A stretch of 64,000 nucleotides of DNA from Candidatus Azophilus lithoversatilis (GTDB taxonomy: Bacteria > Pseudomonadota > Gammaproteobacteria > Pseudomonadales > Azotimanducaceae): positions 1 through 64,000 of the forward strand of contig JAQAJJ010000002.1 of the NCBI GenBank assembly GCA_028278675.1. The letters are read 5' to 3'. The translations under genes were made by a program, and so were the position numbers. Shown here piece after piece: positions 567-36,021 of the stretch. The notes below the pieces were generated by a model, which was not told the origin of the DNA, did no database searches, and saw nothing but the letters and a program-made list of their open reading frames with translations. Positions within the stretch are counted from its first letter, which is position 1. Each line of letters opens with the position of its first letter.

Positions 567-695
567 ATGACCGCCGCCTCCGCAGTTCGCCCCAGATTCG
601 ACGTCCCGCTGAACCAGAAGGCGGTCAGATGGACTATGCTCGCCAGCGAGTGGCGCAACGAATTGCGGCCGAAACAGGAAACCGACTCAGCATGA
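567..695 (+). CDS. possible small protein, unrecognised (42 aa)
   Basis: An ATG-initiated frame of 42 codons begins MTAASAVRPRFDVP and ends in a TGA overlapping the first tandem repeat unit. It has no recognisable domain, and the ribosome site is weak. It may be a remnant of a larger gene interrupted by the repeat or a chance frame. It is listed only because it is the sole start-to-stop frame between the PIN toxin and the repeats. Confidence 0.2.
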   Translation: MTAASAVRPRFDVPLNQKAVRWTMLASEWRNELRPKQETDSA

Positions 696-950
696 AAGCC
701 CTTAGCTTGCCCCAGAACGGCACGCCGCCGATGCCGAGGAACAACCCGCCAGCCGCTGGGCTGTCTCCATTTGTTCCATGAAAGCCCTTAGCTTGCCCCA
801 GAACGGCACGCCGCCGATGCCGAGGAACAACCAGCCAGCCGCTGAGCTGTCTCCATTTGTTCCATGAAAGCCCTTAGCTTGCCCCAGAACGGCACGCCGA
901 CGACGCCGAAGGAACAACCCGCCAGCCGCTGGGCTGTCTCCATTTGTTCC
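692..950 (+). repeat. three tandem copies of an 86-87 bp dispersed element
   Basis: Units lie at 692-777, 778-863 and 864-950 and are nearly identical. Each begins ATGAAAGCCCTTAGCTTGC and ends in TCTCCATTTGTTCC. Unit three has one extra base (CCGAAGGAAC instead of CCGAGGAAC), giving 87 bp or 29 codons, and its reading frame matches the frame used by the related copies inside yidD and beside mnmE. Units one and two have lost that base and read to a stop at the start of the next unit. Related copies lie at 24222-24311, 32764-32847 and 35934-36021. Confidence 0.9.
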
Positions 951-964
951 ATGGAAGGCTGGCC

Positions 965-1168
965 GTGAAACAAAGAAACAACCGCAATCGGGACTCCAGC
1001 GGGCATTGGAAGTGGGGGATGATCTACCACAATCCCGACGATCCAAAAGTCTGGATTGCAAAGCGCTATGGGTGGGGCTGGACGCTCAACATGGCCCGGC
1101 CACAGTCCTGGGCGATCCTCGCGCTCTTGGTGTTGGCTCTCTTGGCCTTGGTGCCGCTGACAACCTGA
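965..1168 (+). CDS. small DUF5808-type membrane protein
   Basis: A 67-residue protein. Its middle carries the DUF5808 signature: WKWGMIYHNPDDP followed by KRYGWGWTLNMARP (about residues 14-45). A single hydrophobic helix (AILALLVLALLALVPL) then ends the protein, so it should be a small inner-membrane protein. The domain is usually found in membrane proteins of unknown function. I start it at GTG 965 because GGAAGG (953-958) is well placed. A TTG at 944 would begin inside the last tandem repeat unit, so the gene sits directly against the repeat array. It converges on polA, whose stop lies 30 bases further on. Confidence 0.65.
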   Translation: MKQRNNRNRDSSGHWKWGMIYHNPDDPKVWIAKRYGWGWTLNMARPQSWAILALLVLALLALVPLTT

Positions 1169-1197
1169 CGCAGGAACTGCGCCAAAGCCCGGACGCC

Positions 1198-3909
1198 CTA
1201 GTGCGCCTCGTCCCAGTTGGCGCCAACGCCGCAGTCCACCAGCAGCGGCACTGACAGTTCGGCGGCGGCTGCCATGCGTTCCTGAACGCCTTCAAGCAGC
1301 GCATCGACCGCGTCCTGCGCCACTTCAAAGACCAGTTCGTCGTGGACCTGCATGATCATCAGCGCATCGATGCCGCTGGCAGCGAGCCAGTCATCGACGC
1401 TGAGCATGGCCCGCTTGATGATGTCGGCGGCGGTGCCCTGCAGGGGGGCGTTGATGGCGGCGCGCTCGGCGGCTTGGCGGCGCTGCATCTGGCGGGCGTT
1501 GATTTCGCGCAGGTGCAGGCGGCGACCGAAGACCGTCTCCACGTAGCCCTGCTCATGGGCCAGCGCCCGGGTGCGGTCCATGTAGTCGGCAACACCGGGG
1601 AAGCGGCTGAAGTAGCGGTCCATGTGGGCCTTGGCCTCCTTCTGCCCAATGCCCAACTGGCGGCTTAGGCCAAAGGCGGACATGCCGTACATCAGGCCGA
1701 AATTGATGGCCTTGGCGTTGCGCCGCTGCTCATCGCTCACCGCCTCCGGCGCGCCGCCGAACACCTCGGCGGCAGTGGCCCGGTGGATGTCCTGGTTGGC
1801 TGCGAACGCCGACAGCAAGCCCTCATCCTGGGACAGATGCGCCATGATGCGCAGCTCGATCTGGCTGTAGTCCGCCGCCACGATGCGCCGACCCTCCGGG
1901 GCTTTGAACGCCTGGCGCACCCGGCGGCCTTCGGCGGTGCGGATGGGGATGTTCTGCAGGTTCGGGTCCGCCGACGACAGCCGGCCGGTGGCGGCCACCG
2001 CTTGGTGGTAGGAGGTGTGGATGCGGCCGGTGTTCGGGTCGATGTCCAGCGGCAGCTTGTCGGTGTAGGTGCCCTTGAGCTTGGTCAGGCTGCGGTGATT
2101 GAGGATCACCGTGGGCAGCTCGTGGCCTTGGGCGGCCAGGTCGCGCAGCACCGGCTCGGCGGTGGACGGCTGGCCCTTCGGGGTCTTGCGCAGCACCGGC
2201 AGGCCCAAACGCTCGAAGAAGATCTCCTGCAGCTGCTTGGGGCTGTCCAGATTGAACTGCGAGCCGGCTATCGACCACGCCTGCTCCTGCAGCTTGACGA
2301 TCTGCTCGGCGAGCTCCTGGCTCTGCCGGCGCAATGCCGCGCCGTCCAAGGCCGCCCCGTTGCGCTCGATGCGGGAGAGCACCGGGATCAACGGCAGCTC
2401 GATCTCCTTGAACACCTTCACCAAGCTGGGGTGCTGCTGGAGCTTCGGCCACAGCGTTTGGTGCAGCTGCAGCGTCACGTCGGCGTCCTCAGCCGCATAG
2501 TCGGAAGCAGCGCCGACTTCGACCTGATCGAAGCTCAACTGCTTGGCCCCCTTGCCGGCCACATCCTCATAGTGCGTCGTGCGCACGCCCAAATGCTTCT
2601 GCGCCAGGTCATCCATGTTGTGGCGGCCTGCGGTGCTGTCGAGCACGTAGGACTCCAGCATGGTGTCAAAGGCGATGCCCGCCAGCGGCGCGCCCGCGCG
2701 GGCGAGCACATTCATGTCGTACTTCAGGTGCTGGCCGATCTTGCGCTTGTTCGGATCGGCCAACAGGGGCTTAAGCTTGGCGAGCACCAATTCCAGCGGC
2801 AGTTGGTCGGGCGCGCCGGGATAACCATGGCCGACCGGCACATAGGCCGCCCGATCCGGCTCCACGGCGAAGGAGAAGCCGACCAACTCGGCCTGCATGT
2901 AGTTGATGCTGGTGGTTTCGGTGTCAAAGGCGAACAACGGCGCTACCTCAAGCTGCGCAATCCAGGCATCCAGGGCCGCTTCGGTGGTGACGCACTCATA
3001 GTGCCGGTCCCGAACCGGCTCCGGATTTGGGTCCTCGAGTTCGTCCAGCCAACTGTTGAACTGGTAGCGCTCGAACAGCGCCCTGAGCGCCTCGGCGTCC
3101 ACCTCGGGCGGCGCGGTCAGCGCCGTCATGGGCACGCCGACATCCACGTCGCACTTGATGGTGGTCAGCGTCTGCGACAGTGGCAGATGGTCGAGGCTGG
3201 CCCGCAGATTTTCGCCGACCTTGCCCTTGATGCTGTCCGCCGCCGCCATCACGGCATCGAGGGAGCCGTGCTCATTGAGCCATTTGGCGGCCGTCTTCGG
3301 CCCCACCTTGGGCACGCCGGGGATGTTGTCCACCTTATCGCCCATCAGCGCGAGGTAGTCGATGATGAGTTCCGGCGGCACACCGAACTTATCGACCACG
3401 CCTTGCCGGTCCATGCTGGTTTCGCTCATGGTGTTGAGCAGGGTGACGCGGTCGTTCACCAACTGCGCCATGTCCTTGTCGCTGGTGGAGATGAGCACGG
3501 TGCGGCCTTCGGCACCGGCTTGGCTCGCCAGGGTGCCGATCACGTCGTCCGCCTCGACTTGAGGGACGGTCAGCAGCGGCAGCCCCATGGCGCGAATGAT
3601 CTCGAAGGTGGGTTCGATCTGCCGGCGCAGGTCGTCGTCCATCGGCGGCCGGTTGGCCTTGTATTCCGAATACAGATCGTCACGGAAGGTCTTGCCCTTG
3701 GGATCGAAGACGATGACCAAGGGACTGCCCGGATAGTCCTTGGCGAGCTTGCGGATCATGGCGATGACGCCGCGCATGGCGCCGGTGGGAAAGCCGTCCG
3801 GGGCGGTCAGCGGCGGCATCGCATGGAAGGCGCGGAACAGGTAGGTTGACCCGTCCACAAGGATCAGGGATTTGTCGTTTGCCGCCGCCTCTGCCACCAT
3901 TGGACCCAT
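1198..3909 (-). CDS. polA: DNA polymerase I
   Basis: DNA polymerase I, 903 residues, for Okazaki-fragment maturation and repair synthesis. The N-terminal 5'-3' exonuclease domain starts at KSLILVDGSTYLFRAFHA. The 3'-5' proofreading domain keeps its acidic residues (FDTETTS near 327, and EDADVTL), so proofreading should work. Polymerase motifs are intact: A (ADYSQIELR near 676), B (RRNAKAINFGLMYG) and C (VHDELVF near 855). The ATG at 3909 puts the exonuclease motif a few residues in, as in the family; a second ATG at 3900 is equally possible, while the frame running further upstream overlaps the divergent DUF2782 gene. Length matches E. coli PolA (928). The polA / DUF2782 / thrB arrangement is that of Pseudomonas. 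Confidence 0.97.
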   Translation of the reverse strand: MGPMVAEAAANDKSLILVDGSTYLFRAFHAMPPLTAPDGFPTGAMRGVIAMIRKLAKDYPGSPLVIVFDPKGKTFRDDLYSEYKANRPPMDDDLRRQIEPTFEIIRAMGLPLLTVPQVEADDVIGTLASQAGAEGRTVLISTSDKDMAQLVNDRVTLLNTMSETSMDRQGVVDKFGVPPELIIDYLALMGDKVDNIPGVPKVGPKTAAKWLNEHGSLDAVMAAADSIKGKVGENLRASLDHLPLSQTLTTIKCDVDVGVPMTALTAPPEVDAEALRALFERYQFNSWLDELEDPNPEPVRDRHYECVTTEAALDAWIAQLEVAPLFAFDTETTSINYMQAELVGFSFAVEPDRAAYVPVGHGYPGAPDQLPLELVLAKLKPLLADPNKRKIGQHLKYDMNVLARAGAPLAGIAFDTMLESYVLDSTAGRHNMDDLAQKHLGVRTTHYEDVAGKGAKQLSFDQVEVGAASDYAAEDADVTLQLHQTLWPKLQQHPSLVKVFKEIELPLIPVLSRIERNGAALDGAALRRQSQELAEQIVKLQEQAWSIAGSQFNLDSPKQLQEIFFERLGLPVLRKTPKGQPSTAEPVLRDLAAQGHELPTVILNHRSLTKLKGTYTDKLPLDIDPNTGRIHTSYHQAVAATGRLSSADPNLQNIPIRTAEGRRVRQAFKAPEGRRIVAADYSQIELRIMAHLSQDEGLLSAFAANQDIHRATAAEVFGGAPEAVSDEQRRNAKAINFGLMYGMSAFGLSRQLGIGQKEAKAHMDRYFSRFPGVADYMDRTRALAHEQGYVETVFGRRLHLREINARQMQRRQAAERAAINAPLQGTAADIIKRAMLSVDDWLAASGIDALMIMQVHDELVFEVAQDAVDALLEGVQERMAAAAELSVPLLVDCGVGANWDEAH

Positions 3910-3955
3910 GTCCGCCAACAAACTGACAGTGTGGCCCGCCGTGGGCGCTTTGGCA

Positions 3956-4246
3956 ATGCGGTGGCTCTGTTCGGCCCGCCTTGGGCTCGTGGCGGCGCTG
4001 TTGCTGGCCTCCGCTGCCGCCTTGTCCTCCGAACCTGAAGCGCTTCGCGGCCCCGATGTCACCATCATCGCCGGGGAGGAGCGCACCGTCTATGAATACC
4101 GGCAGAACGGCCACTTGCGCATGGTCAAGATCGTTCCCAAATGGGGCAAGCCGTACTACCTGTTCCCCCGGGACCAAACCACTGGATTCGGCGACTTGGA
4201 AGAAGCCGACATGCTGCTGCCGACTTGGGTGGTCGTCGAGTTCTGA
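3956..4246 (+). CDS. exported DUF2782 protein
   Basis: A 96-residue exported protein with a signal sequence (about residues 1-25, LGLVAALLLASAAALS) and a DUF2782 body visible in VTIIAGEERTVYEYRQNG and VPKWGKPYYLFPRD. The function of this family is unknown. It is found between polA and thrB in pseudomonads, the same place as here. The ATG at 3956 gives a standard signal peptide; ATG 3908 would add 16 residues and overlap the polA start. Its TGA overlaps the thrB ATG (TGATG), so the two are translationally coupled. It is transcribed away from polA, so both promoters must fit in a very short space. Confidence 0.8.
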   Translation: MRWLCSARLGLVAALLLASAAALSSEPEALRGPDVTIIAGEERTVYEYRQNGHLRMVKIVPKWGKPYYLFPRDQTTGFGDLEEADMLLPTWVVVEF

Positions 4247-5211
4247 TGAACGCCGTCACCCGCTTGGACCGGGCTGACCTGGAAGCTGTGCTTGGCCGAT
4301 ATGATGTCGGCAAACTTGAGGATTTCTGGCCCGCCGCCCACGGCATCGAAAACAGCAACTACTTCGTCCGCACCACGGCCAAGGGGATGCCGTGTGAGTG
4401 GGTGCTTACTATCCTGGAACAAGCGCCCAATGCGGGCGCGGTGTTCGCTCCGCTGCTGGACCTGTGCTTCGACGCCGGACTGCCGGTGGCGCCGGTGCAG
4501 CGCAACGCCGCCGGTGCCCTGCGGGATTCCCTGCGCGGCAAGCCGCTGCTGTTGACGCCGAGATTGCCCGGCAGCCATCCCCGACAAACCTCCGCCGCGC
4601 AGGTTGCAGCCCTGGGGTCCGCCATCGCGAAACTGCACTTGGCGACCCGCAACCCCAGCTTTGCGACGCCCAACCACCCCCGCGATGAAGACTGGCTGCG
4701 ACGCACGGCCCAATCGGTCTGCGGCCAATTGACGGCGGATGCCGCCCAATTGCTTGAACGCTCGCGGCACCGGGTTGCCAGCCTGCTGCACAGCCCGGAC
4801 GCAGCCGCCCTCCCCGCCGGCATCATTCACGGGGACCTGTTCCGCGACAACGTCCTGTTCGACGGCGACCGGCTCACCGGCTTGCTGGACTTCCACCACG
4901 CTTCCCGGGGCTGGCTGATCTACGATCTTGCCGTCGCGGCCAACGACTGGTGCAGCGAGTCTGACGGCGCCCTGGACGAAGGCAAGGCCGACGCCCTGCT
5001 CGCCACCTACCACAGGCACCGTCCGCTCACGCAAGCAGAATTTGAGCGTTTCCCCGATTTCATGACCTACGCCGCATTGGCCTTCTGGCTGTCCCGGCTG
5101 TCCGCCGCCGCCAAGGCGCAAGCCGGCGAGGCAGTTCGGGTGAAGGATCCGGACGAATTCCAGCGCATCATCGCAAGTCGCTTGAGCAGCGAGTTTCGGC
5201 TCAATGTCTGA
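4246..5211 (+). CDS. thrB: homoserine kinase, APH-fold type
   Basis: Homoserine kinase of the aminoglycoside-phosphotransferase fold, 321 residues; it phosphorylates L-homoserine with ATP in threonine synthesis. The catalytic loop is clear (HGDLFRDNVLF, about residue 195) as is the metal-binding Asp of the next motif (LLDFHHASRGW). The N-terminal lobe holds GIENSNYFVRT. The start ATG overlaps the DUF2782 stop by one base. Length is normal for this family. The polA-DUF2782-thrB context, familiar in pseudomonads, supports homoserine kinase over another member of the APH superfamily. Confidence 0.92.
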   Translation: MNAVTRLDRADLEAVLGRYDVGKLEDFWPAAHGIENSNYFVRTTAKGMPCEWVLTILEQAPNAGAVFAPLLDLCFDAGLPVAPVQRNAAGALRDSLRGKPLLLTPRLPGSHPRQTSAAQVAALGSAIAKLHLATRNPSFATPNHPRDEDWLRRTAQSVCGQLTADAAQLLERSRHRVASLLHSPDAAALPAGIIHGDLFRDNVLFDGDRLTGLLDFHHASRGWLIYDLAVAANDWCSESDGALDEGKADALLATYHRHRPLTQAEFERFPDFMTYAALAFWLSRLSAAAKAQAGEAVRVKDPDEFQRIIASRLSSEFRLNV

Positions 5212-5328
5212 CTCAAACCGCTAACGGGTCGTGAAGTTTGGGGTCTAGGGCTTAACCAACCCTACTTGCGGGCTTGGACTGCCCACGGCAGACTTTCGTG
5301 TTATGCGCAACGAAGTCAGGACAGAGGA

Positions 5329-5663
5329 ATGGCTATGAGCAAAGACAATTCAAAGACTGGAAGGACCGTGCGCTTCGCCAAAATGGCGGTCGCTTCGCTG
5401 CCAAGGCTGCCGGCGGCGTGGGGGTACCCGCGGTTGTATCGACGGTGATCGCTTCCGTGGGCACGGCGAGTACGGGCACCGCAATATCCACTTTGAGCGG
5501 CGCGGCGCTGACGAAGGCGACCCTCGCATGGCTGGGCGGCGGAACACTAGCTGCAGGTGGGCTCGGCGTTGCCGGAGGTGCGGTTGTCCTCGGCGCCATT
5601 GGCGTGGTGGGTGCTTTGGGATCGAAAATGTTCTATGACATGGCGACGAAACCAAAGGAGTAA
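5329..5663 (+). pseudogene. glycine-rich hydrophobic protein, apparent one-base frameshift
   Basis: Translation signals (GAGGA at 5325, ATG 5329 or 5335) start a frame reading MSKDNSKTGRTVRFAKMA, which soon ends at 5448. From about 5388 another frame continues sensibly (GRFAAKAAGGVGVPAVV) through a long glycine- and alanine-rich hydrophobic stretch to a charged tail (MATKPKE) at 5663. Restoring one base after ATGGC near 5387 joins the two halves into a protein of about 111 residues. The joined product would have two or three membrane segments made of glycine-zipper-like repeats. I do not recognise the family. It lies 24 bases before the HNH gene and probably formed a unit with it. It could also be a sequencing error, or a shorter intact protein starting elsewhere. 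Confidence 0.5.
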
Positions 5664-5687
5664 CGCAAGGCGACAAGGCCACCAGCG

Positions 5688-6239
5688 ATGGCTATCTGGG
5701 ACTGGCTCCAGGAACTTCCGTTCATTGACGACGTGGCGGATGCCTTCGATTTCTTCAACTAGTTTCTTCCCGAGGCAGACTCAGTCGCCACCTCGATCAG
5801 CAACTATGCCCAACTCCGCGAAGGCATGTATTGGACGATTGGAGAGGACGGAGTCGACACGCGACACCAATGGCTGATCGATTCTTCGTTGGAGCCCGTA
5901 TCCTACGGCGAGAACGGGCAGGTCGAAAGCGGCCTATGGCGAGATTCACACACGGGATTCGAGTCGAGCAATCCCGCGGATTTCGACATTGACCACAGGA
6001 TGCCGTTCCGGGAGATAGCGGACCAATTCCCCCGGCTATACGAGTTACCGAAGGAAGAGCAGCTCGCAATCTACAACGATGTCGAGAACCTACAGATAAT
6101 TCACGATGTGCACAATCTTGAGAAGGGCGACGACCGACCAGCGCAGCATGCGCTGAAGTTGGCTGGTGTGGATATGAAGCGAGAGTTTCTTAAGAAGTGT
6201 GCGAACTATGTGGGACAACTCCAGCAGAGATTCAGTTGA
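5688..6239 (+). pseudogene. HNH-type nuclease gene with in-frame TAG
   Basis: The frame opens MAIWDWLQELPF at ATG 5688 and meets an amber TAG at 5760-5762 after 24 codons. It then runs open in the same frame (FLPEADSVATSISNYAQL, then ATG 5826) to 6239. The second part carries an HNH-like nuclease core: FDIDHRMPFREI, then NDVENLQI and HNLEKGDDRP. Those residues fit an HNH/endonuclease VII-like fold, whose substrate would be DNA. Codons on both sides of the TAG read as one protein of 183 residues, so this looks like a nonsense mutation; the 137-residue part from ATG 5826 might still be made and contains the whole HNH core. The neighbour upstream is the broken glycine-rich gene. Confidence 0.65.
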
Positions 6240-6475
6240 GGTCCGAATGCTTCAGAAACTCGGGCCTGACGACAACACAACTCCGTCTGGGCGATGACGC
6301 CTTGATGAACGAAAGGTAGCCCCAACCAGCTCCGTCAGCAGGCCGCCTTAAAGGTATGCGGCTTGCCACCAACGGCTTCTAGCGGGTACAGGATGGCGGC
6401 GCAACCGAACGTCCCAACTCTTTCGTGATTGAGGCCAGATACCGGTTCGACTGCCCTCCCCCCCGCGAATTATGG
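6240..6475. other. intergenic gap between HNH gene and rloB
   Basis: A gap of 236 bases between two convergent genes. I see no convincing coding frame or RNA gene. A short stretch near 6440 (GGTTCGACTGCCC) resembles a tRNA T-arm loop but its flanks do not pair. Confidence 0.5.
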
Positions 6476-7102
6476 CTAACCTTTGATCGCCCGCAAGTAG
6501 CGAACTAACTGATGTACTTCAGTGCATGGATTGTACTCTTGGGTTCTTAGCGCATCCGTCATTGCCTGCTCAGCGCGGATAGCGGCATCGTCAAGCCGGG
6601 CCTCAAGCTCCCGAAACTTGCACCCACCTTGTTTGGTGTAGCTAGGCTGGTGGCGCTTGAGAGCTGAGATGCAATTGTCGCACTTGCTTCTGCCCCCGCT
6701 ACGCCCGAAAGGTTGTCGCGTGTACTCAAAATGAAGCAGGAACCAGAATTCAAAGCAGGGCCATGATCTGGCCAAGTGGATTCCCGCCCCTTTCGCCGCC
6801 AGGGAGACCGATGCGAAGTGCTTTTGGTCATCGTGATCGAATACGCAATAGGCGCGGTCGTAGTTCTCCCCGTTTCTTTGCTCCCGCCGCTGCTCTTCCT
6901 TAACCAGCTTGACCAAGCCCATTGGATCACGATGAGATGGGACAACAACTATATTCGCTGTGCTCAAGCCGTAAGCAACCACTAACTCCCGAAAGTACTG
7001 CGTCTCCGTGCGCTCACCTACGCACGCGATAAGCACACGATCATAGGGCTCGCGTTGCGGCCTCTGCCGCCTAAGTTGTCGACGCGGCACTCGGCGGGCC
7101 AT
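6476..7102 (-). CDS. rloB: RloB-like abortive-infection protein (AbiLii type)
   Basis: A 208-residue member of the RloB/AbiLii family, which has a TOPRIM-like nuclease fold and works with an RloA ATPase in phage defence. After a basic N-terminus the first strand reads VLIACVGERTETQYF (residues 23-37). The family consensus here is close to CEGxxTExxYF, so the Glu normally seen before Gly is Val28 in this copy. The second acidic motif is intact (YCVFDHDDQKHF), as are SWPCFEFWFLLHFE and a C-terminal helical part. The start lies 4 bases after the rloA stop, so the two form an operon. Family assignment is from motifs; the mechanism is inferred from the AbiL/RloAB systems. Confidence 0.82.
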   Translation of the reverse strand: MARRVPRRQLRRQRPQREPYDRVLIACVGERTETQYFRELVVAYGLSTANIVVVPSHRDPMGLVKLVKEEQRREQRNGENYDRAYCVFDHDDQKHFASVSLAAKGAGIHLARSWPCFEFWFLLHFEYTRQPFGRSGGRSKCDNCISALKRHQPSYTKQGGCKFRELEARLDDAAIRAEQAMTDALRTQEYNPCTEVHQLVRYLRAIKG

Positions 7103-7106
7103 GCAA

Positions 7107-8366: not shown

Positions 8367-8483
8367 GTCCGGCCCTTTTCAGCACGAGATTTGGCGACAA
8401 TTTACAAAGATACCACTTAAATCGGCCTTGACGACAAGTTTTACTGGATTGATGCACATTCGTCGCCGGATACTGGCGACGAA

Positions 8484-10711: not shown

Positions 10712-10715
10712 GGAA

Positions 10716-11315: not shown

Positions 11316-11329
11316 GACGTTAAGCTCCT

Positions 11330-12223: not shown

Positions 12224-12226
12224 TTC

Positions 12227-22611: not shown

Positions 22612-22614
22612 GGC

Positions 22615-23614: not shown

Positions 23615-23667
23615 CTTCTGCGCCCGGCGCCCGTCCTTTCATCGGTCTGAGCCGTAGCCTCGTTAGG
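23580..23667 (+). repeat. dispersed repeat family 2, copy A
   Basis: About 88 bases beginning CTTGATCGCGGG and ending CTCGTTAGG. It matches the reverse complement of 28759-28845 at most positions, including GAGTCAACTT, TGCGCCCGGCG and GGTCTGAG. It covers the start of the lpxL-like gene and reaches the stop codon of tag. Confidence 0.8.
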
Positions 23668-24328
23668 CCAGCGCGGCGCACTTTGCGTAAGCCGGGCAAT
23701 CCACCAAGTGATCATTGACCAACCCCGCGCTCTGCATGAAAGCATAGCAAATTACTGGGCCAACGAAGCGAAAGCCTAGTTTTTTCAACGACTTGGACAT
23801 CGCTACGGAGGCATCGGTCTGGCTCGGAACCGCTTTGAGGCACCGCCAGTGATTCTGGGTTGGCACACCACCCACAAAGGACCAAACCACTTCCGAGAGC
23901 GAGTGCGGCAAGGCCAGCGTGGCTTGGGCATTGGTCATCACCGAGGCGAGCTTGGCTCGATTGCGGATCAGGCCAGGATCGTCAAGCCACCCTGCCATGA
24001 CCTGCGAGTCGGCCGTTGCCAAGGCCTCAATGTCGAAGCCGAAAAAGGCATCGCGCATGTGGTCGCGCTTCTTGAGCACCGTCAGCCACGACAGGCCAGC
24101 TTGCATGCCTTCAAGAATCAGGCGCTCGAACAGGGGCTGCTCGGCGCGTTCCGGAACGCCCCACTCCTGGTCATGGTAGTGGATGAGCGACGGCTCAGCA
24201 CCACACCAGCCGCAGCGCTTTTCCTTGGAAAAGGCGGAGACTGCCCCGGGGTTGGCCGGTGGCCCCTTAGGCGTCAGCGGCGCCCCGTTCCCCGGCAAGC
24301 TGAAGGCTCCCTTTGACCCTGACTCCAC
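23663..24328 (-). CDS. tag: 3-methyladenine DNA glycosylase I with repeat-derived N-terminus
   Basis: Tag, 221 residues, removes 3-methyladenine from DNA. The enzyme proper begins at KRCGWCGAEPSLIHYHDQEW (about residue 37 on), and has LSWLTVLKKRDHMRDAF, WRCLKAVPSQTDASVAMS and the zinc-site end GLVNDHLVDC. E. coli Tag starts within a residue or two of the RCGW motif. Here a GTG at 24328 is the first good start, adding about 36 residues (GAFSLPGNGAPLTPKG...) that are a translated copy of the 87-bp dispersed element. No ATG, GTG or well-placed TTG occurs between the element and the enzyme. It lies in the usual place between the lipid A acyltransferase and plsC. Confidence 0.93.
   Translation of the reverse strand: MESGSKGAFSLPGNGAPLTPKGPPANPGAVSAFSKEKRCGWCGAEPSLIHYHDQEWGVPERAEQPLFERLILEGMQAGLSWLTVLKKRDHMRDAFFGFDIEALATADSQVMAGWLDDPGLIRNRAKLASVMTNAQATLALPHSLSEVVWSFVGGVPTQNHWRCLKAVPSQTDASVAMSKSLKKLGFRFVGPVICYAFMQSAGLVNDHLVDCPAYAKCAALA
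24222..24311 (-). repeat. 87-bp dispersed element, copy inside tag
   Basis: Read on the minus strand it begins GGAGCCTTCAGCTTGCCGGG and ends GCAGTCTCCGCCTTTTCC. It aligns along its length with the tandem units at 692-950 and keeps the reading frame into tag. It is the most diverged copy. Confidence 0.75.
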
Positions 24329-24443: not shown

Positions 24444-28750
<4,307 letters not shown>

Positions 28751-28758
28751 ATGGAGAA

Positions 28759-28845
28759 CCTAACGACGCGACGCCTCAGACCAACGAAGGGGGGTCGCCG
28801 GGCGCAAAAGTTGACTCATTTGACAACCCTTTCCCGCGATCAAGG
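28759..28845 (-). repeat. dispersed repeat family 2, copy B
   Basis: On the minus strand it begins CTTGATCGCGGG and ends GTCGTTAGG, matching copy A at 23580-23667. It fills most of the 117 bases between dnaN and recF. Confidence 0.8.
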
Positions 28846-28867
28846 AAACTAGGCGATAGAAAGGGGA

Positions 28868-29974
28868 TTAGATCTTCATGGGCATGACAACATAGAGCGC
28901 ACTTTCGTCGCCCTCGCCCTCCATTAGGGCGCTGCTGCCCGCTTCAGCCATGCTGATGCGAATGGTCTCCGATCCCACCACCCGCAAGACATCCTGCAGA
29001 TAACCCACGTTGAACCCCAACTGCATGTTGTCGCCCTCATAGGCAACAGGCACCTCTTCCCGGGCCTCCTCCTGCTCCGGATTGTTGGCCACGATGGTCA
29101 TCTGCTCGCCCTCGATCATGAGCTTGACGCCAGGAAACTTCTCATTGGTGAGGATGCGCGCCCGCTGCAGGGCCTGGTTGAGCGTGTTCTTGTCCACGGA
29201 TAACGATAACGCCGGATTTCGGGGGATAACTCGCTCATAATCGGGAAACCGCCCGTCGATCAGCTTTCCAGTCAGGCTGAAGGCGCCCCGGGCAACGCGA
29301 ATCTGGTTTTCGCTCAGCGAGAACCTGACCTCCCCGTCCTCGCCATCGAGCAACCGGCGCAGTTCGATCACGGTCTTTCGCGGCACGATGGCTTGGTGGC
29401 ACTCTGCCCCGGCGACACCCTTGTCCAAAGTGCATTGAGCCAAACGATGGCCATCGGTCGAGACCGAACGCACATGCTCGCTCGTTACTTCAAACAACAT
29501 GCCGTTGAGAAAGTAACGCACATCCTGCTGCGCCATGGCAAAGCTCACCCGGTCGATCAGCTCGCAGGCATCTGCCGTGGTGAGGGTGAACTCCACCGTT
29601 CCAGCCGCCTCGTCACCCGATGGGTAGTCGTCCACCGGCAGGGTCGCCAAGGCGAAGCGGCTGCGCCCGGAGCGCATCACCGCCTGCTCCCCTTCGGTCT
29701 CAAAGCTGATCCGCGCTCCCTCCGGCAACGACCGCCATAGGTCGGCCAGCTTGTGCGCCGACGTAGTGATCTCTCCGCCAACGGAAACATCGACCGAATC
29801 GACGTGCGCCACGAGCTCCATGCTCAGGTCGGTGCCCGCTATGGTCAAGCTCCCATCCGCGCTTGCCCGAACGCAGGCATTGGACAGTATGGGCATGGTC
29901 TGGCGTCGCTCAACCACGCCGGCAATGAGCTGCAACGGGCGAAGCAGGGCCTGACGATCAATTGCGAATTTCAT
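28868..29974 (-). CDS. dnaN: DNA polymerase III beta sliding clamp
   Basis: DnaN, 368 residues, is the ring-shaped processivity clamp. It begins MKFAIDRQALLRPLQ, with the PILSNACVRA segment, and the three similar domains are all present. The C-terminal peptide-binding pocket ends in the typical YVVMPMKI. It follows dnaA after 9 bases and is the usual size (366 in E. coli). Confidence 0.98.
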   Translation of the reverse strand: MKFAIDRQALLRPLQLIAGVVERRQTMPILSNACVRASADGSLTIAGTDLSMELVAHVDSVDVSVGGEITTSAHKLADLWRSLPEGARISFETEGEQAVMRSGRSRFALATLPVDDYPSGDEAAGTVEFTLTTADACELIDRVSFAMAQQDVRYFLNGMLFEVTSEHVRSVSTDGHRLAQCTLDKGVAGAECHQAIVPRKTVIELRRLLDGEDGEVRFSLSENQIRVARGAFSLTGKLIDGRFPDYERVIPRNPALSLSVDKNTLNQALQRARILTNEKFPGVKLMIEGEQMTIVANNPEQEEAREEVPVAYEGDNMQLGFNVGYLQDVLRVVGSETIRISMAEAGSSALMEGEGDESALYVVMPMKI

Positions 29975-29983
29975 GGGTCGCTC

Positions 29984-31312
29984 TTATCTCTTCAAGTCCG
30001 ATATCAGACTGCGGACCTCCTGATCCAATACCAGATCGATTTGGATGAGCCGCTCGATCTTAGCGCAGGCGCTCTTCACGGTGGTGTGATGATTGCCGCC
30101 GAACTCCTTGCCAATGTCCGAATAGGAGCGACTGGTTAATTCCTTGACCAAATACATGGCCAAATGCCGCGCCCGAACCAAATGCCGATAGCGTCGCTTG
30201 GACAGTATTTCCGAAGGTTTGACATCGTAGTGATCGGCCACGGTGCGGAGAATCTCACCAATGTTGATCATTCGGCCCGGACCCCCAACCAAATGCCGCA
30301 AGGCGTCCTGCGCCAACCCCAAATTGACTTCGTCGCCGACGAACTGCGCCTGGCCGATTACGCTCTGCAGGGCACCGTCGAGCTCACGCACGTTGGCGTT
30401 GGCCACCGTCGCGATATAGCCCGCCACGTCCTCGCTCAAGGAAACGCCGCGGTTACGGGCCTTGCTCTTCAGGATGGCGACCCGCATCGCCTTTCCGGGC
30501 GGCTTGATCTGTACATGGAGACCACCGCTAAGGCGAGACTTCAGGCTACCCTCAAGACCCTTCACAAATCGGGGATAGCGGTCGCAAGTGACCACAATCT
30601 GCCGACCACCATCCCATAATCTATTGAATATCCTAAGAAATTCCTTCTGAGTTTGCGGTGCGCCAGCTATGAACTGGATGTCGTCAACCAACAGAACACT
30701 AGCGGATTGGTAGCGCCGCGCGAACTGCTGCATGGCTCCGCTACCCAAGCGAACGGCTTCGACCATGCTTTCCAGAAAAACCTGGCAATGGCAATACACA
30801 ATACTCTCGTCGGCATCGCGGCTCTGAATGAGGTTGCCGATGGCCTGCATGAGATGGGTTTTGCCGAGGCCTACCGAGCCGTGGAACAGCAGGGGGTTGT
30901 TGTCTCTGCCCGGATTATCCGCCACCAGCCTCGCCGCGACCTTCGCGAACCGATTCGACTCCCCTTCAACGAAGTTCTCAAAGGTGTAGGCGGGATCAAG
31001 CCCTCCCCGCCCCCTATGCTTGCAGATTCTGCCCTGAATGCTCGGCTTGGGGCCCTTCGGCTCCGGTTCCGAAGGCTCTCCAACCTCGACTTCCAGCTCC
31101 CTAATCCGGCTGCCGCCACCAAACTCGGCGAGGAATTCAATAATGAGCGGCAGATATTCCCTATTGACCTCGTCACGGATGTAGCGATTGGGAGCATAGA
31201 GCTTGATTCCGCCTTGAACCGGCTGAGCCTGAAGTGGCCTGATGGTGGAATCAAAAGCGTCAGCGGAAATGTGCTCCTGCAGCCTTTGCAGGCACGTCTC
31301 CCATGGGGGCAT
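29984..31312 (-). CDS. dnaA: chromosomal replication initiator DnaA
   Basis: DnaA, 442 residues, binds DnaA boxes and opens the origin. Domain I starts MPPWETCLQRLQEHISADAF; a short linker precedes the AAA core beginning YTFENFVEGESNRFA. Walker A is GSVGLGKTHLMQAIGN and Walker B VLLVDDIQFIAG. The Box VII region reads LKSRLSGGLHVQIKPP, where most homologues have LKSRFGWG. The domain IV signature is FGGNHHTTVKSACAKI, where E. coli has GGRDHTTV, so two base-contact positions differ. ATG 31312 begins domain I correctly; upstream codons in the frame are unsupported. The origin lies on its upstream side. Confidence 0.96.
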   Translation of the reverse strand: MPPWETCLQRLQEHISADAFDSTIRPLQAQPVQGGIKLYAPNRYIRDEVNREYLPLIIEFLAEFGGGSRIRELEVEVGEPSEPEPKGPKPSIQGRICKHRGRGGLDPAYTFENFVEGESNRFAKVAARLVADNPGRDNNPLLFHGSVGLGKTHLMQAIGNLIQSRDADESIVYCHCQVFLESMVEAVRLGSGAMQQFARRYQSASVLLVDDIQFIAGAPQTQKEFLRIFNRLWDGGRQIVVTCDRYPRFVKGLEGSLKSRLSGGLHVQIKPPGKAMRVAILKSKARNRGVSLSEDVAGYIATVANANVRELDGALQSVIGQAQFVGDEVNLGLAQDALRHLVGGPGRMINIGEILRTVADHYDVKPSEILSKRRYRHLVRARHLAMYLVKELTSRSYSDIGKEFGGNHHTTVKSACAKIERLIQIDLVLDQEVRSLISDLKR

Positions 31313-31573
31313 GAATATACTCCGATGGCTCGAATTCTTGTTTGGGTGTAGCACTTCCCTCAAGTGCCCGACCATTCTAGCGACAGGCAATCAGCCTTTG
31401 GAATAGCCCGGATAAAAAAACCTATGGGGAAATTACTTAGTCAACAAAACCAAAGAGTTAGATGAAGAAATGAAAAAAGTCCCTAATAGGAAATCGGCTG
31501 ACGGAGCGCGAATAACCACCGGAAAACCTGTGAATTTCCAAGCGGGTTTTCGCGGCGAAAGAGAAATTTTCAA

Positions 31574-31593
31574 GACTAACCAAAGAGTTAGTC
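31574..31593. repeat. inverted repeat in oriC
   Basis: GACTAAC-caaaga-GTTAGTC, a perfect seven-base stem overlapping the second copy of the 14-base direct repeat and the weak box TTAGTCACA. It could be a protein site or part of the unwinding element. Confidence 0.6.
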
Positions 31594-31803
31594 ACAATGA
31601 CTCTAAAATGGCCGCTGCGAGCGCCGCGCCAAGCCCCAATCCGAGGCTTCCCGAACGGCCACATTCGTCTCAAGGGAGGCGCGCCCAACAAGAAACTTTT
31701 GACCCAAATCGAGAGAAACCGGTGGAATTCCGGTAGCGAAAACGGTGGGCTGACATTGGCACCCTGCAGCGAACGCTCTGCCAATCCTGTGGTCGCCCAC
31801 AGG

Positions 31804-31812
31804 TTTTCCACA
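31804..31812 (+). promoter_or_regulatory. DnaA box, one mismatch
   Basis: TTTTCCACA differs from the consensus TTATCCACA at the third base. Confidence 0.6.
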
Positions 31813-31857
31813 AGGTTTTCCTTCGCCGCAGCCCGCGTGAGCCGTGCGGAACCCGGT

Positions 31858-31866
31858 TTTATCCAC
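31858..31866 (+). promoter_or_regulatory. DnaA box, perfect consensus
   Basis: TTATCCACA, exact match to the high-affinity DnaA box, in the rpmH-proximal part of oriC. Confidence 0.85.
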
Positions 31867-31928
31867 AGGTTGCCCTCACTCGCTACAACAACAACTCTTA
31901 TGTACCTATAAAACTCGTTATTGAGGCA

Positions 31929-31958
31929 TTGACACTTTCGTGCTGCCGCTCCTAGAAT
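31929..31958 (+). promoter_or_regulatory. sigma-70 promoter of rpmH
   Basis: TTGACA at 31929-31934 and TAGAAT at 31953-31958 with an 18-base spacer, 28 bases before the rpmH start. The fit is the best promoter match I noticed in the window. Confidence 0.75.
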
Positions 31959-31986
31959 CGCGCTCCCCGTTGGCACTGGACGCCCT

Positions 31987-32121
31987 GTGAAGAGAACCTA
32001 CCAGCCGAGCAACATCAAGCGGAAGCGCACCCACGGCTTTCGCGCCCGCATGGCCACCAAGGGTGGCCGCAAGGTGATCAACGCCCGGCGCGCCAAGGGC
32101 CGCAAGCGGCTCACCGTTTAG
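31987..32121 (+). CDS. rpmH: 50S ribosomal protein L34
   Basis: L34, 44 residues, reading [18 protein letters not shown] and ending in KGRKRLTV. The sequence is nearly identical to other bacterial L34 proteins. It starts with GTG at 31987 and has its own promoter directly upstream. It is the first gene of the rpmH-rnpA-yidD-yidC-mnmE series that points away from oriC. Confidence 0.98.
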
Positions 32122-32162
32122 CCGGGTCAATCGGACTGGGCAGGAGGGCCAAGCCGAACGGC

Positions 32163-32498
32163 TTGCCAAGGCGCTATCGGCTCAACTCCCCCCGCGACTA
32201 CCGACGGGCGCTAGGCCGCAGGGCCCGCCGCATTCAGTCGGGGCCGTTAAGGATTTTCGCGGTTCGCAATACAATGCCGGGCGCTCGGCTTGGATTGATC
32301 ATCGGCAAGCGCGCTGTGCGCCGGGCCCATGACCGCAATCGGTTGAAGCGCACGGCACGGGAGGCCTTCCGGCAGCGCCGAGCCGGGCTGCCGCCGATCG
32401 ATGTCGTGCTGCATGTGCAGGCGCCGATTCACCATCGGGAACTGAAGCGGCGGCTTGAAGAGGCATTGGAACAGATGAGCGACCCGACAAGCGCATGA
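32163..32498 (+). CDS. rnpA: ribonuclease P protein component
   Basis: RnpA, 111 residues, is the basic protein subunit of RNase P that helps mature the 5' ends of tRNAs. The conserved segment [18 protein letters not shown] (about residues 53-70) and the beginning [15 protein letters not shown] identify it. TTG 32163 is the only usable start in the frame after rpmH; AGGAGG (32142) is 15 bases away, rather far, which suggests low or rpmH-coupled translation. The stop overlaps the yidD ATG. Confidence 0.94.
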
Positions 32499-32863
32499 TG
32501 CGGACCGCCGCCACACTTCGAATGGCCTTGAGGCCCTTGGCGCTGGCCGTCGCCAGGGGCTGCATCCGCGCCTACCAGCTCACCCTAAGCCCCTTCATCG
32601 GCCACCAATGCCGTTTTCATCCAACCTGCTCCAACTACGCGCTCGCTGCGCTGGACAGCCACGGGCCGCTGCGGGGCGCTTGGCTGGCCCTGCGGCGCCT
32701 GTCCAAGTGCCATCCCTTTCATCCCGGCGGCTTTGATCCACCCCCGGCTCCCCGAACTGCGGAGGAAGCCTTTAGCTTGTCCCAATGCGCCAAGCCACTG
32801 ATGCCGAAGCAACAACCAGCCAGTCGGCGGGCTGTCTCCACGAGCCATAAGGAAGCGCCATGA
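32495..32863 (+). CDS. yidD: membrane protein insertion efficiency factor YidD, extended C-terminus
   Basis: YidD, 122 residues, assists YidC in inserting membrane proteins. The family core is clear: [19 protein letters not shown], then [20 protein letters not shown] and [14 protein letters not shown]. coli YidD (85 residues) ends soon after that last motif. Here about 30 further residues ([18 protein letters not shown]...) are a translated copy of the 87-bp dispersed element. The gene overlaps rnpA (ATGA) and yidC (ATGA), so the insertion did not break coupling to yidC. Confidence 0.94.
32764..32847 (+). repeat. 87-bp dispersed element, copy inside yidD
   Basis: Begins GGAAGCCTTTAGCTTGTCCC and ends GGCGGGCTGTCTCCACGAG. 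It aligns with the third tandem unit (864-950) and is read in the same frame as in that unit. Confidence 0.8.
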
Positions 32864-34578
32864 TTCCCATGATCTCCCCGGAGGTGCAGCGCATTGCCTT
32901 GCTGGTTGCCTTAGGCTTAACCGGCTACTTGATGATCTTGGCTTGGAATGAAGACTACATGCAGTCGCAGCCCACCGCCGAGCGGGCAATTGCGCCGGAA
33001 TTGGAGGGCGGGGCCCTGTCCGGCTCGGCGCCAGCCGTCGATCCGGCGTCCGACATACCGGACGCCTCCTTCATCGGCACACCCGATCCAACCGCCGACC
33101 CGGCGGCGGCGCCGGTCGGCAACGCCAGCGCCGCGGACCGGCTGATCCGCGTGGTCACGCCCAGCCAGGAAGTGTGGATCGACCGCCGCGGCGGCGACAT
33201 CCGCCGCGTTCACCTGCCCCGTTACCCGGTGAACCTCGATCAGCCCGACCTACCCTTTGAACTGCTCGATGTGGGCAACGGCCGCCTCTACATGGCGCAA
33301 AGCGGCCTGATCGGCCCGGATGGGCTCGATTCAGGCACTGAGCGGCCGCTGTACAGGGCCGTGCGCACACAATACGAAGTCGGCGATGGAGAGACCCTGG
33401 CCGTCGAACTCGAAGCCGAGGCTGGCGACGTGAAGGTCTCGAAGACCTTTGTCTTTCAGGGCGGCGACTACTTGGTGGACATGATCTACCGAGTGGAAAA
33501 CCGCGGTACGGCGCCCTTCCAGGCCAGCTTGTTCGGCCAGATCAAGCGCGATGCCAAGGAGCCCCCCGGGCAGGAGACCTTCAGCCTCGGTCCGCAGCCC
33601 TACCTAGGGGCCGCCCTCACCACCACCGATTCCCGCTACGAGAAAATCGATTTCGAGGACCTTGACGAAGGCGACTTTCGTGGCCAAGTCGAAGGCGGCT
33701 GGATCGCCTTCCTGCAGCACTACTTCCTGAGCGCATGGATCGCCAACGAAGGCGAGGCGAACAGTTATTACGGCCGCAAGCGCGCCGACGGCACCTACAT
33801 CGTCGGCTACACCGGCCCCTTGGCGACGGTGGCGCCCGGTGGCGAGGGCGAGTGGCGGTCCCGCTTCTACGCCGGCCCCAAGGACCAAAAACGGCTGGAG
33901 CAAATTGCCGACAACCTCAACTTAACCGTGGACTACGGCTTCCTCTGGTGGCTGGCCGTGCCGCTGTTCGCGCTGCTCGACTGGCTGCACGGCCTGGTCG
34001 GTAATTGGGGCGTCGCCATCATCCTGCTTACCGTGCTGGTCAAGCTGGTGCTCTATCCGCTGTCGTCGGCGAGCTACAAGTCGATGGCCAACATGCGCCG
34101 GGTGGCGCCGCAGATGAAGCGCCTGCAGGAACGTTATGCCGATGATCGGCAAAAGCTCTCCCAGGAGATGATGGGCCTGTACAAGAAAGAGGGCGTCAAC
34201 CCGCTGGGCGGGTGCCTGCCCATGCTGCTGCCGATGCCGATCTTCATCGCGCTGTATTGGGTGCTTTTCGAAAGCGTCGAGCTGCGGCAAGCGCCCTTCA
34301 TGCTGTGGATCGACGACCTCGCGGCGATGGATCCATTCTTCATTCTGCCGCTGCTCATGGGCGCCACCATGTACGTGCAGCAGCTCCTGAGCCCGACCAT
34401 GGGCGACCCGATGCAGGCCCGCATCATGAAGCTGATGCCGATCATGTTCACGGTGCTCTTCCTGTTCTTCCCCGCCGGCCTGGTGCTTTACTGGCTGGTC
34501 AACAGTGCGCTGTCCGTCGCTCAGCAGTGGTACGTCATGAAGAAGGCCGAGGCCGCGGCGACTCCAGCCCGGAGCTAG
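32860..34578 (+). CDS. yidC: membrane protein insertase YidC
   Basis: YidC, 572 residues, inserts and folds inner-membrane proteins. One N-terminal anchor ([18 protein letters not shown]) is followed by a linker rich in Pro and Ala and a large periplasmic domain (about 85-340). The C-terminal five-helix insertase core begins [20 protein letters not shown] and includes [20 protein letters not shown] and [20 protein letters not shown]. The ATG overlaps the yidD stop. It ends 2 bases before the likely mnmE start. Confidence 0.97.
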
Positions 34579-34580
34579 CC

Positions 34581-35906
34581 CTGTTCAGCGACACGGACAC
34601 CATCGCCGCGATCGCCACGCCGCCGGGGCAGGGCGGGGTGGGCATCGTGCGCATCTCCGGCTCTTCATCGCTTAAGATCGGCGAATCCATCGTCGGCGAG
34701 CCGTTGCCCCCGCGTCACGCCTTGCATGCCCGGTTCACCCATGAAGGCGAGTTGCTGGATGACGGTGTGGGCCTCTACTTTGCCGCACCCAACTCATTTA
34801 CCGGCGAAGACGTGGTGGAACTGCAGGGCCACGGTGGCCCCGTGGTCATGCAGATGCTGCTGAACGCGGTGCTCGCCGCCGGGGCGCGGTTGGCCCGCCC
34901 TGGAGAGTTCAGCGAACGGGCTTTCCTCAACGGCCAAATCGATCTGGCCCAAGCGGAGGCGGTGGCGGACCTCATCGCCAGCGCCTCAATCCAAGCCGCA
35001 CTCGGCGCGGTGCGTTCCTTGTCCGGGGAATTTTCTTTACATATTAACCAGTTGGACGAAAAAGTTCTGAAGCTTCGGGTCTCTGTGGAAGCCGCGATAG
35101 ACTTTCCCGACGAGGAGGTTGAATTCCTGGAGCAGGGCCGCGTCGGCGAGCAAATCGAGTCGCTTGTCGACGCCGTCCAGGCACTGGCCCAGCAGGGTCG
35201 ACAGGGCGCTTTGCTCACCCAGGGCGTCAGCATCGCCATCATCGGCGCACCCAACGCCGGCAAATCAAGCCTGCTGAACCGCCTCAGCGGCGAGGAAGCG
35301 GCCATCGTCACCGACATTCCCGGCACCACCCGCGACTTGCTCAAGGTGGACTTGGTCCTTGATGGCCTGCCGGTTCGCCTGGTGGACACGGCGGGCTTGC
35401 GCGACACCACTGATCCCGTGGAGGTTGAGGGCGTGCGCCGCGCCCGCCTGGAGGCCGAGAGAGCCGACCTCATCCTGGAGGTGTGCGACCTAGCCGCGAT
35501 CCCAGTGAAAACAGAGCCAACCACCCCCGAACGCACCCTGCGCGTGGAGAACAAGATCGACCTATGCAACGCCTCCCCGGGACCCGTGAAGGACTTGCCG
35601 TCCACGGTCCGCGTATCCTGCCTGACCGGCGCCGGCATCGGAGCGTTGAAAAGCGCCATCAAGAAGCGAGTGGGCTTCACCGGCGAAAGCTCAGCCTTCA
35701 GCGCCCGCCAACGCCACATCGAAGCCCTCAACGCCGCTCTGGCGGCCTTGGAAAACGTCGCCGAGCACCTGCAATCCAACGCTGCCGCTGAAGTCATTGC
35801 CGAGGAGCTGCGCCTAGCCCACCTGGCGCTCGGCGAAATCACTGGCGAAACCACCCCAGACGACCTCCTAGGCAGCATCTTCGCGACCTTCTGCATCGGC
35901 AAGTAG
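34581..35906 (+). CDS. mnmE: tRNA modification GTPase MnmE, likely CTG start
   Basis: MnmE (TrmE), 441 residues, works with MnmG to modify the wobble uridine of tRNAs. The N-terminal folate-binding domain reads DTIAAIATPPGQGGVGIVRI, the G domain has GAPNAGKSSLLN (about 222), DIPGTTRDLLK, DTAGLRD and NKID, and the C-terminus is the family FCIGK. No ATG, GTG or TTG is in frame near the expected beginning. CTG 34581 gives the correct N-terminus and has GGAG at 34571-34574, six bases ahead. Any canonical start would lie well inside yidC. Enzyme identity is secure; the start is inferred. Confidence 0.95.
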   Translation: MFSDTDTIAAIATPPGQGGVGIVRISGSSSLKIGESIVGEPLPPRHALHARFTHEGELLDDGVGLYFAAPNSFTGEDVVELQGHGGPVVMQMLLNAVLAAGARLARPGEFSERAFLNGQIDLAQAEAVADLIASASIQAALGAVRSLSGEFSLHINQLDEKVLKLRVSVEAAIDFPDEEVEFLEQGRVGEQIESLVDAVQALAQQGRQGALLTQGVSIAIIGAPNAGKSSLLNRLSGEEAAIVTDIPGTTRDLLKVDLVLDGLPVRLVDTAGLRDTTDPVEVEGVRRARLEAERADLILEVCDLAAIPVKTEPTTPERTLRVENKIDLCNASPGPVKDLPSTVRVSCLTGAGIGALKSAIKKRVGFTGESSAFSARQRHIEALNAALAALENVAEHLQSNAAAEVIAEELRLAHLALGEITGETTPDDLLGSIFATFCIGK

Positions 35907-35933
35907 CCGGGCTTCAAAGGCTTCCGCCCTCCA

Positions 35934-36021
35934 ATGGGAGCCTTCAGCTTGCCCCAAACGGCACGCCGCCGATGCCGAAGGAACAACCGGCCAGCCGCGG
36001 GGCCGTCTCCATTTGTTCTAT
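35934..36021 (+). repeat. 87-bp dispersed element, copy behind mnmE
   Basis: Begins ATGGGAGCCTTCAGCTTGCC and ends GTCTCCATTTGTTCTATGG. It lies 27 bases after the mnmE stop and lacks one base of the CCCCAGAACGG run, which breaks the frame seen in the other copies. Confidence 0.85.

What the first reader, a model, noticed from the sequence alone, without database searches (positions are those of the whole stretch)
692..36021. An 87-bp, 29-codon dispersed element inserted in or beside housekeeping genes
Six copies in 36 kb: three in tandem (692-950), one in tag (24222-24311), one in yidD (32764-32847) and one after mnmE (35934-36021). The consensus length of 87 bases is a whole number of codons, and the copies in tag and yidD are translated in the same element frame (peptide like AFSLPQNGTPPMPK), as is unit 864-950. 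This resembles the Rickettsia palindromic elements, which insert in frame into genes and survive as extra peptide segments. I know of no such element described in a gammaproteobacterial origin region.
Basis: partly seen in the sequence, partly recalled or inferred. Interest (0 to 1): 0.82.

Follow-up and report, generated by a model that had tools for sequence, protein, structure and literature searches.

The report
In-frame jumping DNA in bacterial genes
An 87-letter DNA repeat occurs an estimated 220 times in one gammaproteobacterial genome, is missing from the matching spot in a close relative at 13 compared sites, and lengthens nine predicted proteins by 24 to 87 amino acids without breaking their reading frame, so it is likely a mobile element able to hide inside genes.

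Summary
The six window copies belong to a family with an estimated 220 units in this 3.77-Mb genome, often head to tail at exactly 87 bp (36 of 58 steps). Of 19 comparable arrays, 12 have a base-exact empty site in a relative, as has yidD. Of 12 host genes with an empty relative, 9 carry the insert in frame, 2 are shifted, 1 is unresolved. The RPE-like reading is right about behaviour, but this is no RPE: it is not palindromic, has no inverted ends and no clear target duplication. It lies 3' of a short purine word (GGAAG, GGGAG, CGAAG) and carries its own GGAAG at the right end, which would let the next copy stack in tandem. In-frame survival needs no special selection: 29 codons, four of six frames open, and the codon phases of GAAG would leave about 88% of coding hits open. 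No helper enzyme was found. New variant of a known kind.

The parts
699..784 (+). Element unit 1 (86 bp) of the tandem array; left pentamer GAAAG at 694-698
785..870 (+). Element unit 2 (86 bp)
871..957 (+). Element unit 3 (87 bp), ending in its own GGAAG (953-957)
24220..24306 (-). Element copy (87 bp, diverged) in frame near the N terminus of tag; left target GGGAG (minus strand) at 24307-24311, also GGGAG in G002's empty site
23663..24328 (-). tag (DNA-3-methyladenine glycosylase I) with 29 extra residues before RCGWC
   Evidence: TIGR00624 matches residues 37-213, i.e. after the insert; 217.6 bits, below its cut-off of 232.5
32769..32855 (+). Element copy (87 bp, diverged) in frame near the C terminus of yidD; target GGAAG at 32764-32768; element-end GGAAG at 32851-32855 lies 4 nt before the ATG of the next gene (yidC by recall)
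32495..32863 (+). yidD with 29 extra codons before its last residues; its stop overlaps the next gene's start
   Evidence: (TIGR00278)
35941..36026 (+). Element copy (86 bp) in the spacer after mnmE, not translated as part of it; left pentamer GGGAG 35936-35940

Best explanation
This 87-bp element, at an estimated 220 units in the genome and with exact empty sites in relatives, is a non-autonomous mobile repeat that likely inserts just after short GAAG-type sequences, and its 29-codon length with most frames open is likely why it sits in frame inside genes such as yidD, tag and a DNA methyltransferase gene. Shown: copies, ends, empty sites, in-frame reading frames, head-to-tail units. Inferred: an enzyme acting in trans joins the element's left end (CCYTNAGCTYGCCCC) to the 3' side of a target of the form NRRAG, leaving the target unchanged and without copying it; the element brings GGAAG at its own right end. 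Also inferred: that GGAAG is a fresh target for the next insertion, which would make exact head-to-tail arrays, and arrays then gain or lose units by slippage. Beside genes the right-end GGAAG or GAAAG can fall at Shine-Dalgarno distance from the next start codon, so the downstream gene likely stays translatable. The chemistry that fits best is a single-strand (HUH-like, IS200/IS605- or IS91-like, recalled) insertion without target duplication, but the enzyme is not identified.
For: Copy number and controls. Empty sites: yidD exact in G002, G007, G008; of the 60 arrays held at that point, 19 had both flanks in a fetched relative locus, and 12 of these 19 had a base-exact empty site in at least one relative. 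Of 51 array sites with usable flanks, 27 were put into the joined-flank searches. Protein level: host peptides with the insert left out align to relatives without gaps in 8 of the 10 genes tested, and with a single-residue gap in the other two, L036 (3 relatives) and L044 (1 relative). In-frame inserts with an empty relative: yidD, tag, a HAD hydrolase (L034), a sulfatase (L036), CcmI (L044, two units), an Eco57I-type methyltransferase (L057), a COX1-family protein N terminus (L066, three units), a GST (L069, 72 bp), and L073 (no Pfam match); identities. Further in-frame inserts without an empty relative: a DNA polymerase II (L203), a Fic-domain protein (L201), a TonB plug (L045), the same sulfatase's N terminus (three units). 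Of the 14 YidD database proteins aligned (541 hits in all), six of 122-126 aa have the segment and six of 93 aa lack it. Polarity: the left pentamer is GGAAG in 26 of 64 arrays, the right one in 46 of 66; left and right four-mers agree in 26 of 54. By my reading, at 14 sites (the 12, yidD, tag) a relative's empty-site pentamer equals the left one only at 6, the right one only at 0, both at 3 and neither at 5. Tandems: 36 of 58 steps are exactly 87 bp. In-frame tolerance: A-type consensus open in 4 of 6 frames; GAAG lies in coding frames 139:99:14 (sense) and 39:19:144 (antisense), which by my mapping puts 401 of 454 in an open frame.
Against: No Y1 (PF01797) or Y2 (PF04986) transposase was found in this genome, and its only IS110 match is a fragment with stops, below the cut-off. 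Of 24 fetched transposase loci I scanned 13 for the element's right end and found none. At 5 of 14 sites (L036, L059, L065, L069, L070) the relatives' pentamer equals neither side, and 7 of 19 comparable arrays gave no exact empty site. The left 'AG' is conserved partly because arrays were aligned on it. The yidD copy is also present, diverged, in the more distant G004 and in six database proteins, while a protein 97% identical to one of these in the host part lacks it, so gain, loss or gene exchange there is not settled. Some genes are harmed: UbiA (239 bp; 237 in the alignment to G004) and the L046 gene (323 bp) are shifted, and an alcohol-dehydrogenase-like frame (L068) ends 15 residues after a three-unit array. 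The A-type consensus is not unusually open against shuffles (4 or more frames open in about 24%), and in-frame lengths are not enriched in genes (9 of 11 resolved) over all arrays (47 of 60 multiples of three, some of these with N inside).
Confidence: 0.72

Rival explanations
1. A MIRU-like minisatellite: units spread and multiply by recombination or replication slippage between short GGAAG matches, with no transposase at all.
For: Head-to-tail units with 4-5 bp matches at the ends; no helper enzyme found; MIRUs of Mycobacterium tuberculosis are 40-100-bp repeats scattered at 41 places, 12 of them varying in unit number (PMC2734929, passages).
Against: Slippage multiplies units in place but does not explain single copies with exact ends at unrelated sites and on both strands (46 of 80 arrays hold one unit).
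Confidence: 0.15
2. A MITE moved by a DDE transposase, the shared GAAG being a true target-site duplication.
For: GAAG-type four-mers flank many copies on both sides, and 17 of 54 arrays have GGAAG on both.
Against: The four-mers differ in 28 of 54 arrays, the right one being nearly constant; such a duplication would be expected to vary in sequence; the two ends are not inverted copies.
Confidence: 0.08
3. The copies have been kept because they help: they supply Shine-Dalgarno sequences, extra start codons or useful peptide linkers.
For: Right-end GGAAG or GAAAG lies shortly before the start of yidC and of a gene recalled as purH, and a few other arrays abut gene starts.
Against: Only a minority of the 60 arrays sit so; frame use is close to the codon phases of the target and needs no selection; two host genes are shifted out of frame.
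Confidence: 0.04
4. Ordinary ancestral protein segments lost in the relatives, or assembly artefacts.
For: The yidD segment is old and shared; several arrays contain runs of N.
Against: The same sequence sits in unrelated genes and spacers at an estimated 220 units, and as single, N-free copies with exact empty sites.
Confidence: 0.01

Closest known systems
Rickettsia palindromic elements (RPE)
   Same: Short repeats that insert in frame into unrelated genes as extra peptide; also found outside genes (PMC10969869, passages read).
   Different: RPEs are about 150 bp (same source) and palindromic by name; this unit is 87 bp, not palindromic, sits head to tail, follows a GAAG-type target, and is read from either strand.
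Mycobacterial interspersed repetitive units (MIRU)
   Same: 40-100-bp dispersed repeats in arrays of varying unit number (PMC2734929, passages).
   Different: MIRU insertion at stop/start (DTGA) junctions is recalled, not read; here the target is GAAG-type and many copies lie inside genes.
Enterobacterial RU/ERIC elements and Coxiella QMITE2
   Same: Small mobile repeats of gammaproteobacteria, sometimes fused in frame to genes (PMC2759123; PMC5896051; passages only).
   Different: 103-190 bp in these sources; QMITEs have inverted ends and direct repeats of variable sequence; head-to-tail 87-bp arrays are not mentioned in the passages.
IS200/IS605 and IS91 family insertion (and their non-autonomous derivatives)
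   Same: Insertion next to a short fixed target without duplication (recalled); here the left end follows NRRAG and no clear duplication is seen.
   Different: No Y1 or Y2 enzyme found in this genome and no partner with the same right end in 13 of 24 fetched transposase loci.
REP/BIME with RAYT
   Same: High copy number; one Y1 gene each in three element-bearing relatives.
   Different: REPs are 20-40-bp palindromes (PMC3733652, start of abstract); this unit is not.

Membership tests
Rickettsia palindromic element | in-frame insertion into unrelated protein genes | tested here: met
Rickettsia palindromic element | palindromic, strongly folding sequence | tested here: not met
   z-scores -1.91 to +0.30 (best case 8 of 200 shuffles fold as well); 7 consensus pairs, covariation term +0.11
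Rickettsia palindromic element | sequence kinship to known RPE families | not tested
   no RPE sequence was fetched; Rfam at gathering threshold gave no match in the window
MIRU | 40-100-bp units, dispersed, in head-to-tail arrays | tested here: met
MIRU | insertion at stop/start overlaps (DTGA), recalled | tested here: not met
   targets are mostly GAAG-type, many inside genes
MITE | terminal inverted repeats | tested here: not met
   left end CCYTNAGC and right end TTGTTCCATGGAAG are not inverted copies
MITE | target-site duplication | tested here: inconclusive
   left/right four-mers agree in 26 of 54 arrays; empty sites agree with the left only at 6 of 14 sites, right only at 0
IS200/IS605 or IS91 derivative | fixed short target at one end, no duplication | tested here: inconclusive
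   of 14 sites 6 support it, 3 cannot tell, 5 match neither side
IS200/IS605 or IS91 derivative | Y1 or Y2 transposase in the genome | tested here: not met
   0 matches in G000; an enzyme lost since the spread is not excluded
REP/BIME | 20-40-bp palindrome, outside genes | tested here: not met

The most novel reading that the evidence does not exclude
A new class of gene-tolerated mobile element: 29 codons long, aimed at the Shine-Dalgarno-like word GGAAG, regenerating that word at its own right end so that it stacks head to tail, and sharing its target and end with other, unrelated repeats that one undiscovered enzyme moves through this genus, so that whole proteomes are sprinkled with selfish peptide segments.
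Probability: 0.35. Interest if true: 0.78.

Novelty: new variant of a known kind. Interest (0 to 1): 0.63.

Why it matters
In-frame selfish DNA inside working genes is best known from Rickettsia. Here it appears in a 3.8-Mb gammaproteobacterium with many near-identical copies and with filled/empty site pairs in close relatives. That makes it possible to ask directly how proteins such as a DNA polymerase II, CcmI, YidD or a Fic-domain protein accept a new 29-residue segment, and how a mobile element gains from being a whole number of codons. It also warns annotators that lineage-specific protein segments in such genomes may be mobile DNA rather than domains.

Tried and rejected
Rejected: that in-frame placement proves selection on the element. 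The consensus is open in 4 (A type) or 5 (B type) of 6 frames, which shuffles reach in about 24% and 7%, and frame use is close to the codon phases of GAAG. Rejected: that the genus's repeats in general have whole-codon lengths; length differences of 89, 106, 127, 176, 239, 323 and 331 bp occur. Rejected as the main rule: insertion at Shine-Dalgarno sites; a minority of arrays sit there. Not shown: a selected hairpin; the consensus fold is weak and the right-end stem is broken in several relatives' copies (my reading). A scan for right-end-only against left-end-only fragments failed, because the left motif was too loose (59 matches in 359 kb of shuffled control against 2 for the right motif). 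A helper enzyme was sought through PF01797, PF04986 and PF01548 without success. Plasmids: no match; phages: one 29-base match taken as chance; viral contigs: no exact match to a pattern of 19 fixed bases. Literature: nine searches of the open-licence PMC library listed no paper that I recognised as describing this element; only looked for its own letters (three strings, 0 papers).

Full report
WHAT IS THERE. The unit is 87 bp (two window units and the mnmE copy are 86). The window lies in a 104-contig, 3.77-Mb genome, 99.6% complete. Whole-genome searches gave 83 and 81 matches with two different copies as query, each scoring only 40 of 220 and 231 candidates. The core 14-mer CCRAWGGAACAACC has 111 exact matches against 0 for its reversed control; it is in 54 of 106 units in the loci held by then, which gives about 218 units. 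The junction word TTCCATGGAAG has 96 matches against 0. Of 80 arrays examined, 46 hold one unit, 15 two, 14 three and 5 four; 36 of 58 steps between units are exactly 87 bp.

WHERE IT OCCURS. Among 58 genomes (own, 8 of the genus, 28 of the family, 21 of the order), the own genome, 4 of the 8 genus members and one family member had a match (at most 15 candidates scored per genome). The family member's 29-base match (L080) was not among the profile's hits. An exact 18-mer of the element was in none of 193 other genomes of the order (only 6 exact copies in the own genome, so a weak test). That these are sponge-associated bacteria is my recollection of the RHO label, not a call. A two-unit peptide matched 4 of 25 candidate proteins in the large protein database, two from ENA and two without a named source. 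The 21 relatives' copies read out are single in their loci and more diverged; near-identical copies and tandem arrays were seen in the window's genome, which suggests a recent burst there (inference; relatives were not searched as deeply).

EMPTY SITES. In yidD, G002, G007 and G008 read ..GCGGAGGAAGCGCCATGA.. where this genome has 87 extra bases between the two GGAAG words (length). The tag copy is likewise absent from G001, G002, G007 and G008; G004 has a different, shorter stretch there. For the other arrays I searched joined flanks of 27 of 51 usable sites and fetched 40 relative loci. Of 60 arrays, 19 had both flanks in a fetched locus; 12 of these had a base-exact empty site in at least one relative. 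The other 7 showed other inserts or small length differences. At two sites filled here, relatives carry different inserts (108 bp in G007, 147 bp in G002) that also start with GGAAGCC.

ENDS AND TARGET. The left pentamer is variable (GGAAG 26, GGGAG 9, GAAAG 6, CGAAG 5 of 64), the right one nearly constant (GGAAG 46 of 66); the left and right four-mers agree in 26 of 54 arrays (the last two left bases are fixed partly by how arrays were aligned). At 14 sites with an empty relative (the 12, yidD and tag) the relatives' pentamer equals the left one only at 6 (L034 both arrays, L046, L049, L066, tag), the right one only at 0, both at 3 (L057, L073, yidD) and neither at 5 (L036, L059, L065, L069, L070). 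This is my reading; for L034's first array only one of five relatives agrees, for tag only G002. I conclude that the element goes in 3' of a purine-rich word and brings GGAAG at its own right end; a true duplication is less likely. A right-end GGAAG would be a new target, which would account for exact head-to-tail arrays.

INSIDE GENES. Host peptides read with the insert left out align to relatives without gaps in 8 of 10 genes tested, and with a one-residue gap in L036 and L044. Adding yidD and tag, 12 genes have an empty relative: 9 are in frame here (yidD, tag, HAD hydrolase, sulfatase, CcmI with two units, Eco57I-type methyltransferase, COX1-family protein with three units at its N terminus, GST with a 72-bp copy, and L073 with no Pfam match), 2 are shifted (UbiA, 239 bp, or 237 in the alignment to G004; the L046 gene, 323 bp) and 1 (an SDR-like gene by eye, L049) has N in the array. 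Further in-frame cases without an empty relative are a DNA polymerase II (L203), a Fic-domain protein where the insert lies six residues after the HPFTDGNKR motif (L201), a TonB plug (L045) and the sulfatase's own N terminus. In L068 an alcohol-dehydrogenase-like frame ends 15 residues after a three-unit array, probably a truncation. The consensus insert reads EALSLPQNGTPPTPKEQPASRWAVSICSM in sense and HGTNGDSPAAGRLFLRRRRRAVLGQAKGF in antisense.

WHY IN FRAME. Intact units are 29 codons; 47 of 60 inserts are multiples of three (some contain N), and 9 of the 11 resolved in-gene cases are, so there is no enrichment in genes. The A-type consensus is open in four frames. In long window reading frames GAAG lies 139:99:14 in the three sense phases and 39:19:144 in the antisense phases; by my mapping 401 of 454 of these would put the element in an open frame. 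The in-frame habit thus follows from length, composition and target, without need of selection on each copy.

HISTORY AT yidD. Of 14 database YidD proteins aligned (541 hits, 120 listed), six of 122-126 aa have the segment and six of 93 aa lack it; two more distant ones lack it too. One form with the segment is 97% identical in its host part to one without, and the more distant G004 has a diverged copy at the same site. So this insertion is old, and loss, gene exchange or repeated gain has happened since; precise loss between the two GGAAG words is possible but not shown.

ENZYME. No Y1 or Y2 transposase was found in this genome; one IS110 fragment with stops, below the cut-off. G002, G007 and G008 each have one Y1-domain gene. 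Thirteen of 24 fetched transposase loci were scanned and none has the element's right end. The motor is unknown.

LITERATURE. I read passages, not whole papers: PMC10969869, PMC5896051, PMC2759123, PMC2734929; the start of the abstract of PMC3733652 from a listing. The original RPE papers were not read; one was asked for and not held. Features of IS200/IS605, IS91 and MIRU targets, and the names yidC and purH, are recalled.

Noticed in passing
window 28760-28852; also 40334-40434 (minus): A second dispersed repeat of about 100 bp (..GTCGCCGGGCGCAAAAGTTGAC..CCCGCGATCAAG..), with many matches in G002 and G008 and an 89-90-bp length difference from them at 28760.
   Followed up: partly
window 35907-36120: The spacer after mnmE differs in each relative compared, with REP-like GAGGGCAAGATGCCCTC repeats in G002 and G007; a repeat hotspot.
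   Followed up: partly
L075, L058, L056, L207, downstream of arrays: Longer repeats starting GGAAGTTCC or alike follow the 87-bp element or its end word directly, and the one in L075 ends in the same TTTGTTCCATG, as if several families shared target and right end.
   Followed up: partly
L034:1354-1592: UbiA is shifted out of frame by a 239-bp array (one 65-bp unit) and its frame runs on into the next gene, a HAD hydrolase; real or an assembly slip.
   Followed up: partly
L056, minus strand, first unit of the array: A strongly diverged unit (GGCCTTTGGCCTGCGCCGG..CAGTCTCCGTCTGTGTTCCAT) heads the array, hinting at older subfamilies.
   Followed up: no
L092 (G004) and L207 (G000): Chimeras: the left end of this element joined to another repeat, and the reverse.
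   Followed up: no
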